Of a stretch of DNA of 64,000 nucleotides, positions 35,486-39,387 are shown piece after piece. Source of the stretch: Sulfobacillus thermosulfidooxidans DSM 9293 (GTDB lineage Bacteria > Bacillota > Sulfobacillia > Sulfobacillales > Sulfobacillaceae); NCBI RefSeq assembly GCF_900176145.1, contig NZ_FWWY01000001.1:2601444-2665443 (forward strand), given 5' to 3'. The position numbers were made by a program, and so were the translations under genes. Each line of letters opens with the position of its first letter. Position 1 is the first letter of the stretch. Under the pieces are notes generated by a model that searched no databases, had not been told where the DNA came from, and saw only the letters and a list, made by a program, of their open reading frames with translations.

Positions 35486-35779
35486 TGGAAATTTCCGGGT
35501 GATCAGGCAAGGCGATTGTTTGTATAGGACGGCAAGCATGATAAGAGATGATTTTAGATCGTAGCATAAACACACAAAGGGATCTTGTCGATCATCCCGT
35601 CTTCCAAATGCTGTAACTTCCGTGCCAGTGAGAGTGAGAGCCGCTAAAAGTGTGATGGGATAGGTTTTTTCACTCGCCGGATTTAATCGTTAAGAGGGTT
35701 GCAGGTTTTGGGATTTCCACTGTTCGATAAGATGATGGCCAAGAGTGTTGTGTTGGTGGCCGAAGAACAAGCGGGTCGT

Positions 35780-36462
35780 GTTACTTGCGCTGTCGGCTAA
35801 CTCCAAGAGCCCAGCGGTGCTCGAAATGCTCAAGGAAGAAAAAACGGTTGGCCAGATTGCTGCCGAATACGGCATTCATCCCTGCCCTTGGCATCGCGGG
35901 AAGCGCCGGAGGTTCGAGCATTTTCCGCCGTTGTTTACTGAGTCTCAAGCGCTCTAACAACATGCCCCAGCCCACCAACAACAGTTGACGGCACTTTAGG
36001 CGAAAATCGGCAAACTGTCCCCCATGTTGAGTGGCACAAAAAAGCGTTGGACAACGTGTTGACGGAACGGCTTTGGCGGAGTATGCAATATGAAGACGTG
36101 GATCTACCTGCACGATGACCGTTCACCGCGGGAAGCACGGTCCGGCCTGAGCCGATATTTTACAGTGTATAACTATCCCTGACTTCACCAGGCATTGGGA
36201 TATACGCTACCCGCCGCCTGGTATTGGCCCTCCCGTCACCGGACCCGGATTGACGGGAAGAGAACCATCGGAGATGTTTCCCATGGATTCGGGTGAGACC
36301 CCATAGGCAGCCGTTTGGGTTGAGCCTCCCGTTTGCCGGCGGGCCCACAAGCGGCCCACGCCAAACGGGGGGATAATGTCCTCAATGAAGACCAAAAGAA
36401 AGGAGGCCCGTCTCAACACTTTGGGGCTCAAAAATCTGTCTTAACAAAGGGGTTCCACCTTA
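35780..36462 (+). pseudogene. Decayed IS3-family insertion sequence (copy 1)
   Basis: A relic of orfA reads SPAVLEMLKEEKTVGQIAAEYGIHP then REHFPPLFTESQAL-like sequence and LYAKIGKLSP with frameshifts. The frame then jumps to an orfB C-terminus (DNVLTERLWRSMQYEDV) near 36050-36110, so most of the DDE catalytic domain is deleted. A right-end sequence TGTCTTAACAAAGGGG at 36437 resembles the end of the second copy near 38721. The 290 bp upstream of the relic (35486-35780) show no gene. Confidence 0.7.
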
Positions 36463-36880
36463 ATTTGATCCGGTGGTAACCGCTTTACAGTGTGGGTTCG
36501 ATCAACACGACTTTCAGCGAATATCTACCCCTTCGGTCCCGAGGTTCGTCACACTCAATCAATATCTAAATATGCTGTGCCGCGAAATACATACGGAAAT
36601 CGTAGTGTCCCATAATCCGAGTGGGGCCCATCACCTTTCTCCACTCGAGATGACCGTAACCAAGCCAACGACAACGGCTTTTCATCAGCGGATGATTAAA
36701 ATCTGTCGAAATTAAGAATAGATACATTTTTTCATCCTTGTACATACCAGATGATAAAAATATGCTAGTGAGAAATAAAAGGACTACGATGGCTTCGACG
36801 GATGGAGTTCCCTGAAATCATGAATCTGGCTTTCTGATTAAACGGACATTTTTAGGCTATTGGATTCGCATGGACAAGTT
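36463..36880. other. Non-coding stretch between IS3 relic and nuclease gene
   Basis: An 80-codon open frame (36473-36715) has no ribosome binding site and no recognisable composition. The right part is clearly AT-rich. It holds the promoter region of the nuclease gene. Confidence 0.4.
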
Positions 36881-36882
36881 TC

Positions 36883-36891
36883 TGCTATAAT
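36883..36891 (+). promoter_or_regulatory. Extended -10 promoter of the nuclease gene
   Basis: TGCTATAAT is a consensus extended -10 element, 53 bp before the GTG start of the HNH gene. There is no good -35, which the extended form does not need. Confidence 0.55.
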
Positions 36892-36943
36892 AATTGTAGT
36901 TTTCTAATATTTCCCATAAAGAATATTCGATAGGAGACAATTT

Positions 36944-37936
36944 GTGAATATCTTTATTCATCATGTAGGAAAAGACGGCGCTAATCGTGATTTTCCTAAG
37001 AGCATTGAAAATCAAGTTCCCTCGCAAAAGACAAAACTATATAAATCAACTTTTCGTAATGGCCTAAAGAATATAGGAGACGAAACTAACATATGGGGCG
37101 TCCCAGCAGGAGCTAAGCCAATTTTTGACCAATTAAATGAGGGGGATTGGATATTCCTCATTGGCTCGTTGAATAAAATTCCCGACACACAAACATGGGA
37201 AAGTAAAATCCGATTTGCTTTCCAAATTGTTGATTACACCATCGGTATAGAAGAGCAGGCGTTTGATCTTAGCAAGAGCATTTGGGGCGAGCCAAGATTT
37301 CCCCTCGTTGTGGTTGGGCAAGTCTTTCCGATCGACCTTCAATATAGTCGGTTATTACGTTATATAGGCTACAAACCGAATTTTTTTCCATCAGGACTCT
37401 TTTTTAGGGTTAACGAGAGCCGTATGGCTATGACACCTGAGGAGTTAATGGAAGAAATATTGAGTGAATCGTGTGTAATGGACAAGGATGATCTAGTATC
37501 TCAAAGAACAACTAAATTCGTATTACGAGCCATTAGAGCTGCATCTTTTAGAAACCGTGTTTTAAATGTTTTAGGCAAACAATGTGCAGCGTGTAATTTC
37601 AGCACCCTTAGGGAACCATCGCTTTCTAGTGGAATCGAGGTCGCACATATCGTTCCCGTTGAATATGGCGGTCAAGATACCATTGAAAATGGGATTCCTC
37701 TGTGTCGACTCCATCATTGGGCATTCGATAACGGATTAATCACGTTTCGCGTAGACCACGAACGTTTAAAGACTGTTGTTCATCCGACTCGAGGTATGTA
37801 TTTAGGCCAACGAGATTGGGCGTTACAGCAATTTGAAGCATCTACTATTTCTTTGCCAGGAGATAAGCAGTATCTTAAAATTCTTGAACGTAATTTGAAT
37901 GAGCACAATTCAATTTATAGATGGGACCTAAGTTAA
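36944..37936 (+). CDS. EVE-like/HNH endonuclease, candidate modification-dependent restriction enzyme
   Basis: A 330-residue protein. The N-terminal ~155 residues resemble EVE/PUA-type modified-base readers: IWGVPAGAKPIFDQLNEGDWIFLIGS near 50-75 has the typical WGVP, GD and aromatic pattern. Residues about 200-270 are an HNH nuclease: zinc-type pair CAAC (214/217), EVAHIVP with His235, ENGIPLCRLHH with Asn249 and His258. Known EVE-HNH proteins cut DNA with modified cytosines (type IV restriction). The start is GTG after AGGAG. The gene is more AT-rich than its neighbours and lies between two IS3 relics, consistent with transfer. No methyltransferase is nearby, as expected for type IV. Confidence 0.75.
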   Translation: MNIFIHHVGKDGANRDFPKSIENQVPSQKTKLYKSTFRNGLKNIGDETNIWGVPAGAKPIFDQLNEGDWIFLIGSLNKIPDTQTWESKIRFAFQIVDYTIGIEEQAFDLSKSIWGEPRFPLVVVGQVFPIDLQYSRLLRYIGYKPNFFPSGLFFRVNESRMAMTPEELMEEILSESCVMDKDDLVSQRTTKFVLRAIRAASFRNRVLNVLGKQCAACNFSTLREPSLSSGIEVAHIVPVEYGGQDTIENGIPLCRLHHWAFDNGLITFRVDHERLKTVVHPTRGMYLGQRDWALQQFEASTISLPGDKQYLKILERNLNEHNSIYRWDLS

Positions 37937-38062
37937 AGACATTGTTTAAGGTTCCTAAGGTAGACACTAGACGGTTCGGAGCCCGCGGTGCCTCGTGGAG
38001 TCGAAAGGTGTATATATGTATATATAAAGTTTTCCATGAAAAGGGTTATAGAAAGCTCGTCG

Positions 38063-38293
38063 TTATGTGAACTTTTCAGAGTTAACAATCTGAACTTTTC
38101 GACATGGCGCATGCGCTATGATACCCTCGAAATCCATAGCATCGCTTGCATCGAGAACCATCCGATCGATTAGAATCACTATCTCATCCAATCTGCGGTA
38201 ATAAGGATCGCCCGCTTTTGGCCAACCATGCTCCATGTCATAGTTTCCGAGGATATCCGAATCGAGGATGCCCTTAACGAACCATGTTTCCAT
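38063..38293 (-). CDS. Doubtful small ORF, possibly a truncated gene
   Basis: A 76-residue frame (METWFVKGILDSDILGNYD at the start) with protein-like composition but no ribosome binding site. Its 5' end meets the second IS3 relic, so it could be what is left of a gene cut by that insertion. I do not recognise it. Confidence 0.25.
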   Translation of the reverse strand: METWFVKGILDSDILGNYDMEHGWPKAGDPYYRRLDEIVILIDRMVLDASDAMDFEGIIAHAPCRKVQIVNSEKFT

Positions 38294-38329
38294 GTCTTTT
38301 CGCCAGTGCCACGTTTGTCAATGATTATA

Positions 38330-38749
38330 TAGCTAATAACATGCTGAGATTGTTGACGCTTTTAATTCCCCATGGCAATATCTTTATCGAGCGACTGTGG
38401 CGATTCCGTGAAGTACGAGGAAGTCTAATTAAACGATTATGCCTCTCCGCAAGAAGAGCGCCAAGGCTTGAATCGCTACGTTCACTTTTACAGCCTTCAG
38501 TGTCTACATCAAGCGTTAGGGTATCGCACGCCTGCCGAACGTACTATCCGGGTTTTCCACCGTTAACACGGCGGAAGTGCCGTTTGAGCAATTTGGCACA
38601 GCCGGATGGGCTGAGCTCAGGACAAGTGCCCAGCTCCTACGTATGCTGACGCTTTCACTGACTGTTCCATCAAAATACACCAAAAAAGGGGGAACAATCT
38701 CACACTTAAGGGCCAAAAATTTTGTCTGGACAATGGGGTCCACCTTACA
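38330..38749 (+). pseudogene. Decayed IS3-family insertion sequence (copy 2)
   Basis: The C-terminus of orfB can be read across frameshifts: NIFIERLWR near 38377-38403, an EARQGLNRY-like stretch, and HQALGYRTPAE near 38508-38540. It is followed by a right end TTTGTCTGGACAATGGGG at 38721, matching copy 1. The N-terminal half and orfA are gone. With copy 1 it brackets the nuclease gene. Confidence 0.7.
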
Positions 38750-38789
38750 GTGTTAGAGCGTATCTCAACCGTCTTGATTCAAACCACGA

Positions 38790-38833
38790 AAGGAGGAAGC
38801 GGCGCTCCCCTCGGTCTAAACCGAGGTTCCGCG
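38790..38833 (+). mobile_element. Orphan right end of an IS200/IS605-type element
   Basis: One frame reads TKGGSGAPLGLNRGSA followed by a stop, the usual tail of TnpB genes. It coincides with a perfect hairpin CCTCGGT-CTAA-ACCGAGG at 38809-38826, ending TTCCGCG. This is the typical 3' scaffold of such elements. No tnpA or remaining tnpB is present; the upstream sequence is the IS3 right end. Confidence 0.5.
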
Positions 38834-38847
38834 TAACTCTACACCTT

Positions 38848-39387
38848 ATGCGAAAAGTGCTTGTGATAGGATCACCAGGGGCTGGCAAATCAACCCTTGC
38901 CCAGCAGTTGGGCGTTATCACAGGACTTCCTGTCATTCATTTGGACCGCTTATATTTTCGACCCAACTGGGTGGAGCCGTCTCTTGAGGAATGGATCTCA
39001 ATCCAAGAAGACCTTGTCCAGCGTGATGCATGGATTATCGATGGCAATTATGGAAAGACACTGGATATCCGTCTTCAGGTGGCCGACACGGTAATCTTTC
39101 TTGATTTTTCTCGTTACGTTTGTTTATGGCGGGTCTTAAAGCGCATCAAACAGCATTATGGTCATACTCGAGACGATATGGCTGAGGGGTGCGAGGAACG
39201 GTTTGATGGTGAATTTTTGCGCTATATCTGGCAATTTCCCCATGATCAGCGGCCCCGAATCCTCGACCAGTTGCGAGAAAGACAGCAGCGGGGGACCCAC
39301 ATCATCCACCTTCGGAGGTCATCAGACATTTCGCGTTTATTGCAAAGCCTCACTACATCTTTAGGAACAGGCAAACATCGCTTTTAA
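38848..39387 (+). CDS. FlaR-like P-loop kinase (adenylate-kinase fold)
   Basis: A 179-residue P-loop protein. MRKVLVIGSPGAGKSTLAQQL is the Walker A region, and the layout (HLDRLYFRPNW, then DAWIIDGNYGKTLDIRL) matches the 'DNA topology modulation' FlaR family, whose reaction is not well established. I start at ATG 38848, the position typical of the family; an earlier in-frame start at 38722 would include transposon-end sequence. There is no ribosome binding site, and the upstream 90 bp are an IS605-type right end, so its native promoter has probably been replaced. Confidence 0.75.
   Translation: MRKVLVIGSPGAGKSTLAQQLGVITGLPVIHLDRLYFRPNWVEPSLEEWISIQEDLVQRDAWIIDGNYGKTLDIRLQVADTVIFLDFSRYVCLWRVLKRIKQHYGHTRDDMAEGCEERFDGEFLRYIWQFPHDQRPRILDQLRERQQRGTHIIHLRRSSDISRLLQSLTTSLGTGKHRF

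What the first reader, a model, noticed from the sequence alone, without database searches (positions are those of the whole stretch)
35486..38850. Island with an EVE-like/HNH nuclease between two IS3 relics
The gene at 36944-37936 encodes an N-terminal domain with EVE/PUA-like features and a C-terminal HNH nuclease. This is the architecture of modification-dependent (type IV) restriction enzymes. It is AT-richer than its surroundings, has its own extended -10 promoter, and is bracketed by two decayed IS3-family copies with matching right ends (36437 and 38721). There is no partner methylase. It is the best defence-system candidate in the window. The fold assignment of the N-terminus is inferred from short motifs only.
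Basis: partly seen in the sequence, partly recalled or inferred. Interest (0 to 1): 0.6.

Follow-up and report, generated by a model that had tools for sequence, protein, structure and literature searches.

The report
Modified-DNA-sensing nuclease on acquired island
A bacterial genome carries a foreign 3.4-kb insert with one intact gene for an enzyme that most likely recognises chemically modified DNA with one domain and cuts it with another, a probable anti-virus defence of a kind already predicted but hardly characterised.

Summary
Window 36944-37936 is an intact 330-aa gene. The C-terminus is a complete HNH nuclease. The N-terminus, invisible to Pfam for this protein, is a PUA-superfamily EVE/YTH reader domain. 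A profile built without the window protein detects it (32.6 bits; best of 200 shuffles 6.7). [quoted passage not shown] Z 15.8 over 161 residues), then EVE and YTH domains.
The island is real. A congeneric genome has the same two flanking genes about 100 bp apart where the window has 3.36 kb. Both flanks of the gene are decayed IS3-family copies with matching right ends. The gene is AT-rich and has no DNA match in 30 relatives.
Best reading: a single-chain type IV (modification-dependent) restriction endonuclease, working like VcaM4I (EVE-HNH) but with a McrB-type EVE/YTH reader. YTH-HNH enzymes are named in print as uncharacterised candidates. The recognised base is unknown: the nearest relative reads 6mA, but the host has adenine-type methylases and no 5mC methylase. 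New member of a known kind, moderate interest. Side finding: in Firmicutes (pro)phages the same reader, on another HNH, follows a MazG-like gene.

The parts
35486..38845 (.). Island: 3.36 kb present here where a congeneric genome (G390) has about 100 bp between the same two genes (FAD oxidoreductase, ending 35485; P-loop/AAA_18 kinase-like gene, starting about 38849)
35793..36043 (+). Left IS3-family relic: orfA (HTH_Tnp_1) remnant
   Evidence: 83-84% identical to intact IS copies on own contig C2 and in G324
36044..36462 (+). Left IS3-family relic, continued: orfB (rve) tail and right end, joined to orfA by an internal deletion of about 660 bp
   Evidence: 75-84% identical to intact copies
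36463..38375 (.). Unique AT-rich segment (41% GC) between the relics; single copy in the genome, no DNA match in 30 relatives
36883..36891 (+). Extended -10 motif TGCTATAAT (promoter not proven; no good -35)
36932..36936 (+). Ribosome-binding site AGGAG
   Evidence: sequence
36944..37936 (+). Gene for the EVE/YTH-HNH endonuclease, 330 aa, GTG start
   Evidence: single copy in genome
36944..37438 (+). Reader domain, residues 1-165: EVE/YTH (PUA superfamily), closest to the T. gammatolerans McrB N-terminal domain
37094..37096 (+). W51, invariant in 18 aligned sequences, in register with a Trp of the T. gammatolerans McrB domain; likely wall of the base pocket (inferred)
37283..37285 (+). W114, invariant in 18 aligned sequences, in register with a second Trp of the McrB domain; likely wall of the base pocket (inferred)
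37493..37573 (+). Predicted helical linker, residues 184-210 (VcaM4I has a linker helix at this place)
   Evidence: PMC7897488
37574..37813 (+). HNH nuclease core, residues 211-290; H235, N249, H258 (catalytic by motif) and C214, C217, C254, H257 (likely zinc ligands), all invariant in the 12-row alignment A2
38376..38748 (+). Right IS3-family relic: orfB tail and right end only

Best explanation
The gene encodes a single-chain, modification-dependent (type IV) restriction endonuclease. Its N-terminal EVE/YTH domain flips a modified base out of incoming DNA into a pocket walled by W51 and W114; its C-terminal HNH domain, dimerised and held off by the linker helix until then, cuts the DNA nearby. 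It needs no partner methylase because its own chromosome lacks the mark (or the mark in the context) that it reads. It arrived by horizontal transfer as part of a 3.4-kb insert. Shown here: the two domains, the catalytic residues, the fold (by prediction and homology), the absence of an adjacent methylase, the empty site. Inferred: base flipping, dimerisation and autoinhibition, modification dependence, defence role, and which base is read.
For: N-terminal domain homologous to EVE/YTH readers: independent profile 32.6 bits, shuffles at most 6.7; profile match to T. gammatolerans McrB domain 6p0f E 3e-4 over 133 positions and to EVE protein PH1033; structure match Foldseek E 3e-7, Z 15.8, then PH1033, MJECL36 and YTH domains (model pLDDT 75.5, pTM 0.72). 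Sub-threshold Pfam EVE hits in haloarchaeal homologues at the same place. The McrB domain reads 6mA in DNA (PMC7680126, PMC7641849); VcaM4I shows the EVE-linker-HNH design at work (PMC7897488). The HNH domain is related (32% over 164-305, E 3e-11) to a protein of virus HHPV4, whose endonuclease HHPV4I is proven modification-dependent (PMC10101028), and to the phosphorothioate-dependent nucleases, weakly to TagI/McrA. Homologues fuse the same HNH to other readers: SRA-like and the DpnI wH domain. Genome has no C5 cytosine methylase and no PF02384 N6 methylase.
Against: No activity data. The window protein itself does not reach any Pfam reader family. Its reader has a ~15-residue insertion and lacks a third aromatic that is conserved in the phage branch. 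The host has at least three adenine-type (DPPY/DPPF) methylases, which a context-free 6mA reader would not tolerate. Three of the phage relatives carry a C5 methylase gene nearby, which a context-free 5mC reader might not tolerate.
Confidence: 0.8

Rival explanations
1. Sub-case: the reader domain senses N6-methyladenine specifically (a YTH-HNH enzyme), in a sequence context that the host's own methylases do not make.
For: Closest solved relative by sequence and fold is the 6mA-reading domain of T. gammatolerans McrB (PMC7680126); YTH domains dominate the next structural hits; haloarchaeal homologues L059 and L066 carry the DpnI-type 6mA reader beside it.
Against: EVE domains that read 5mC/5hmC share the fold, and the literature says these YTH-like domains cannot clearly be told from EVE by sequence (PMC7641849); the host has several adenine-type methylases; a companion 6mA reader in L059/L066 could as well mean that the EVE/YTH domain reads something else.
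Confidence: 0.3
2. Sub-case: the reader domain senses 5-methyl- or 5-hydroxymethylcytosine, as VcaM4I does.
For: Same architecture as VcaM4I; no C5 cytosine methylase in the host genome, so 5mC would mark foreign DNA; VcaM4I pocket is formed by P24, W82 and Y130 (PMC7897488) and the window has W51-G-V-P54 and W114.
Against: Nearest relative is a 6mA reader; VcaM4I itself did not appear among the structural or sequence matches shown; three phage relatives have a C5 methylase nearby.
Confidence: 0.35
3. An HNH nuclease with another job (phage packaging helper, homing or selfish endonuclease) left by a decayed phage or mobile element, with the EVE/YTH domain as a general DNA-binding module.
For: Phage homologues with the same reader sit beside terminase genes; the island is a mobile-element graveyard.
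Against: No phage gene in the window island; haloarchaeal homologues lie on chromosomes and plasmids near helicase, TIR and restriction-type genes; the HNH subtype here differs from that of the phage branch.
Confidence: 0.12
4. A decayed gene without function.
For: Both neighbours in the island are wrecked IS copies; no promoter beyond a -10 motif.
Against: 330 codons open, ribosome-binding site, all catalytic and metal-binding residues and both invariant Trp kept.
Confidence: 0.08

Closest known systems
VcaM4I / TspA15I / CmeDI (EVE-HNH modification-dependent endonucleases)
   Same: N-terminal PUA-superfamily reader, helical linker, C-terminal HNH, about 310-330 aa, no partner methylase
T. 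gammatolerans McrB N-terminal domain (6p0f, 6p0g), YTH domain reading 6mA in DNA
   Same: Same fold, sequence similarity over most of the domain, two tryptophans in register
   Different: There it is fused to a GTPase motor and works with McrC; here it is fused to an HNH nuclease in one chain
HHPV4I (SRA-wH-HNH, cuts G6mATC)
   Same: Related HNH domain
   Different: Readers differ (SRA variant and DpnI-type wH there; EVE/YTH here)
Phosphorothioate-dependent SBD-HNH nucleases (NF045808)
   Same: HNH domain and preceding helix align (E 3e-18)
   Different: N-terminal part does not match; 65.8 bits against a cut-off of 180
PHROG 14240 (unknown function)
   Same: Haloarchaeal homologue matches it over its whole length, phage homologues over the reader domain
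   Different: The window protein's best matched stretch is the HNH part

Membership tests
Type IV EVE-HNH restriction endonuclease (VcaM4I group) | N-terminal PUA-superfamily reader domain | tested here: met
Type IV EVE-HNH restriction endonuclease (VcaM4I group) | C-terminal HNH with catalytic residues | tested here: met
   H235, N249, H258 present
Type IV EVE-HNH restriction endonuclease (VcaM4I group) | Helical linker between the domains | tested here: inconclusive
   helix 184-210 predicted, but pLDDT is low before residue 190
Type IV EVE-HNH restriction endonuclease (VcaM4I group) | No accompanying DNA methylase gene | tested here: met
   none in the island
Type IV EVE-HNH restriction endonuclease (VcaM4I group) | Reader belongs to EVE rather than YTH | tested here: inconclusive
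   nearest is McrB-type YTH, then EVE proteins; Pfam EVE not reached by this protein, sub-threshold in homologues
Type IV EVE-HNH restriction endonuclease (VcaM4I group) | Cleavage depends on modified bases | not testable with these tools
   needs enzyme assays
YTH 6mA reader | Three-residue aromatic cage | tested here: inconclusive
   two Trp (W51, W114) in register with the McrB domain; third wall not identified; alignment with human YTHDF2 failed
McrBC | AAA+ GTPase motor domain and McrC partner | tested here: not met
   no such domain in the protein or island
Phosphorothioate-dependent SBD-HNH nuclease (NF045808) | Family score over the curated cut-off | tested here: not met
   65.8 bits against 180, only residues 188-310 match
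IS3 family (relics) | orfA HTH_Tnp_1, orfB rve transposase, shared terminal sequence | tested here: met

The most novel reading that the evidence does not exclude
The protein is a YTH-HNH restriction enzyme that reads N6-methyladenine in a context spared by the host's own adenine methylases: a one-chain counterpart of the archaeal McrB reader, and one of the first defined enzymes of a kind so far only named in the literature as a future target.
Probability: 0.3. Interest if true: 0.55.

Novelty: new member of a known kind. Interest (0 to 1): 0.38.

Why it matters
YTH-HNH fusions are listed in print as candidates for 6mA-dependent restriction still to be characterised (PMC11037411). This protein and its haloarchaeal and phage relatives give a defined family with two invariant tryptophans to test, and could tell what separates 5mC from 6mA reading within one fold. 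Single-chain modification-dependent cutters are also useful for mapping modified bases.

Tried and rejected
Direct Pfam, PADLOC and NCBIfam scans of the protein: nothing for the N-terminus. Homologue search in viral contigs with the window protein alone: none; with L058: none. First structure prediction of the whole protein with 12 sequences gave a poor N-terminus (mean pLDDT 56.6) and was not used for it. Profile comparison with a human YTHDF2 YTH domain (sequence recalled, then verified identical to PDB 4wqn) gave no meaningful alignment, so the cage residues could not be mapped by that route. VcaM4I itself was not seen in the structure matches shown; that does not exclude it. Considered and set aside: a composite transposon of the two IS3 relics, since the left relic has no recognisable left end and the right relic lacks its whole 5' part, so outer ends and target duplications could not be tested; the reader domain being a winged helix as in HHPV4I, since the fold is a PUA-type one. 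The 5 Firmicutes-phylum HNH hits match only the HNH part and were not used as family members.
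Full report
Observation. The gene at 36944-37936 is an intact 330-codon frame with a GTG start and an AGGAG ribosome-binding site. It is single-copy in its genome. It is AT-rich: 40.3% GC against 48.7% for the window, GC3 34% against about 50% for the neighbours. The extended -10 TGCTATAAT is there, at 36883, but without a convincing -35, and the region's promoter-like sites are not clearly more numerous than in shuffles.

Island. A search of 30 relatives with 5 kb around the gene gives an empty site: in G390, of the same genus, the upstream FAD oxidoreductase gene (82% identical) and the downstream P-loop gene (76%) lie about 100 bp apart, where the window has 3.36 kb. 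No relative has a DNA match to the endonuclease segment, and the protein search finds no homologue in the six same-genus or same-family genomes among those drawn. Both sides of the gene are wrecked IS3-family elements. The left one keeps orfA (35793-36043) fused to the orfB tail and right end (36044-36462), with about 660 bp missing compared with an intact copy on the same genome's second contig, whose two frames match HTH_Tnp_1 and rve. The right one keeps only the orfB tail and right end (38376-38748). Their right ends agree at 75% over 72 bp and 14/16 at the terminus. Since neither copy has both ends, whether they moved the gene as a composite transposon cannot be tested.

HNH domain. HNH_2 at residues 217-268 (E 2e-11). 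H235, N249 and H258 and the pairs C214/C217 and C254/H257 are present and invariant in the alignment with haloarchaeal homologues. By sequence this HNH is nearest to those of modification- or phosphorothioate-dependent enzymes: NF045808 (E 3e-18 over 188-310, but far under the cut-off), TagI and McrA weakly, and a protein of the archaeal virus HHPV4 (32% over 164-305); that virus encodes HHPV4I, an endonuclease shown to cut G6mATC (PMC10101028).

Reader domain. No library recognises the N-terminus of this protein alone. Full-length homologues were found in haloarchaea (20-28% identity in the alignments), and through a profile of their N-termini in Firmicutes-type genomes and viral contigs. Tested with the window left out of the profile and 200 shuffles as controls, the window N-terminus scores 32.6 bits, in two collinear halves, against at most 6.7 for shuffles. 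The family profile, run against all PDB sequences, finds first the N-terminal domain of T. gammatolerans McrB (E 3e-4, aligned over 133 positions); an earlier, smaller profile put the EVE protein PH1033 first (E 1e-3) and the McrB domain second. A structure predicted from the 18-row alignment (pLDDT 75.5, pTM 0.72) matches the same McrB domain best (Foldseek E 3e-7, TM 0.63-0.66; Z 15.8 over 161 residues), then PH1033, MJECL36 and many YTH domains at Z 8.7-11. In the haloarchaeal homologues Pfam EVE appears below threshold at the same place. Five residues are invariant in all 18 sequences: W51, G52, D68, W114, F153. W51 and W114 align with two Trp of the McrB domain. In YTH domains aromatic residues form the base cage, and the cage is reported to be kept in McrB-N and MJECL36 (PMC8868631); that W51 and W114 are these residues is inference.

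How it likely works. By analogy with VcaM4I (PMC7897488), whose EVE domain flips 5mC/5hmC into a hydrophobic pocket, whose linker helix inhibits the HNH dimer, and whose HNH domain then cuts: the present protein has the same order (reader 1-165, predicted helix 184-210, HNH 211-290). Modification dependence and defence are inferred from family, not shown.

Which base. The nearest relative reads 6mA (PMC7680126), and PMC11037411 names YTH-HNH fusions as candidates still to be characterised; a full-text search of the held library found no other paper using that name. On the other side, the host has no C5 cytosine methylase and no PF02384 methylase but at least three PF01555 methylases with DPPY/DPPF motifs, among them a type III Mod-like protein and a BREX-like PglXI next to BrxC, so its own DNA probably carries 6mA. 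A reader of any 6mA would then be suicidal; a reader of 5mC/5hmC would not. The evidence is split, and I give roughly equal weight to the two.

Relation to known kinds. The protein works like the EVE-HNH enzymes and meets their main architectural criteria; EVE versus YTH cannot be decided by these tools, as the literature also says for this group (PMC7641849, which lists fusions of the McrB-type domain to GTPases and PD(D/E)XK nucleases). It is not McrBC (no GTPase) and not a phosphorothioate enzyme of NF045808 (score far below cut-off). Novelty: new member of a known kind.

Relatives worth following. In L138, L139, L141, L143, L144 and L151 (genomes of the same phylum and viral contigs) the same reader, fused to a different HNH subtype, directly follows a MazG-like gene with about 9-54 bp between them. 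Near three of the viral relatives (L143, L144, L149) is a C5 methylase gene. In haloarchaea, L066 and L059 add a DpnI-type wH domain in front of the EVE/YTH domain, and L059 an SRA-like stretch as well: several readers on one HNH nuclease.

Noticed in passing
L138, L139, L141, L143, L144, L151: A MazG-like gene (PF12643, E about 1e-22) lies about 9-54 bp upstream of the EVE/YTH-HNH gene in six loci from the same phylum and viral contigs; absent from the window and from the haloarchaeal loci. A two-gene unit not described in the papers read.
   Followed up: partly
L143:5608-6693, L144:1326-2351, L149:1410-2222: C5 cytosine methylase genes near the virus-borne EVE/YTH-HNH genes, and terminase genes beside several of them.
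   Followed up: partly
L059:6762-8480, L066:7122-8417: Haloarchaeal homologues with a DpnI-type winged helix (PF17726, E about 1e-13) before the EVE/YTH domain and HNH; L059 also has an SRA-like N-terminus by eye: several modification readers on one nuclease.
   Followed up: partly
L058:7489-7818 (-): Apparently decayed second copy of the reader domain on the opposite strand just upstream of the intact gene (profile E 4e-7).
   Followed up: no
G000:C1 about 2581000-2585000, 290258-291205, 803552-804253: Host methylases: BREX-like BrxC with PglXI-type methylase about 17-20 kb before the window, a type III Mod-like protein, and a stand-alone DPPF methylase; no C5 methylase found in the genome.
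   Followed up: partly
window 35608-35685: Short stretch repeated in several related genomes (G395, G402, G352, G392, G400), at contig ends in some; not part of the IS3 copy aligned here; identity unknown.
   Followed up: no
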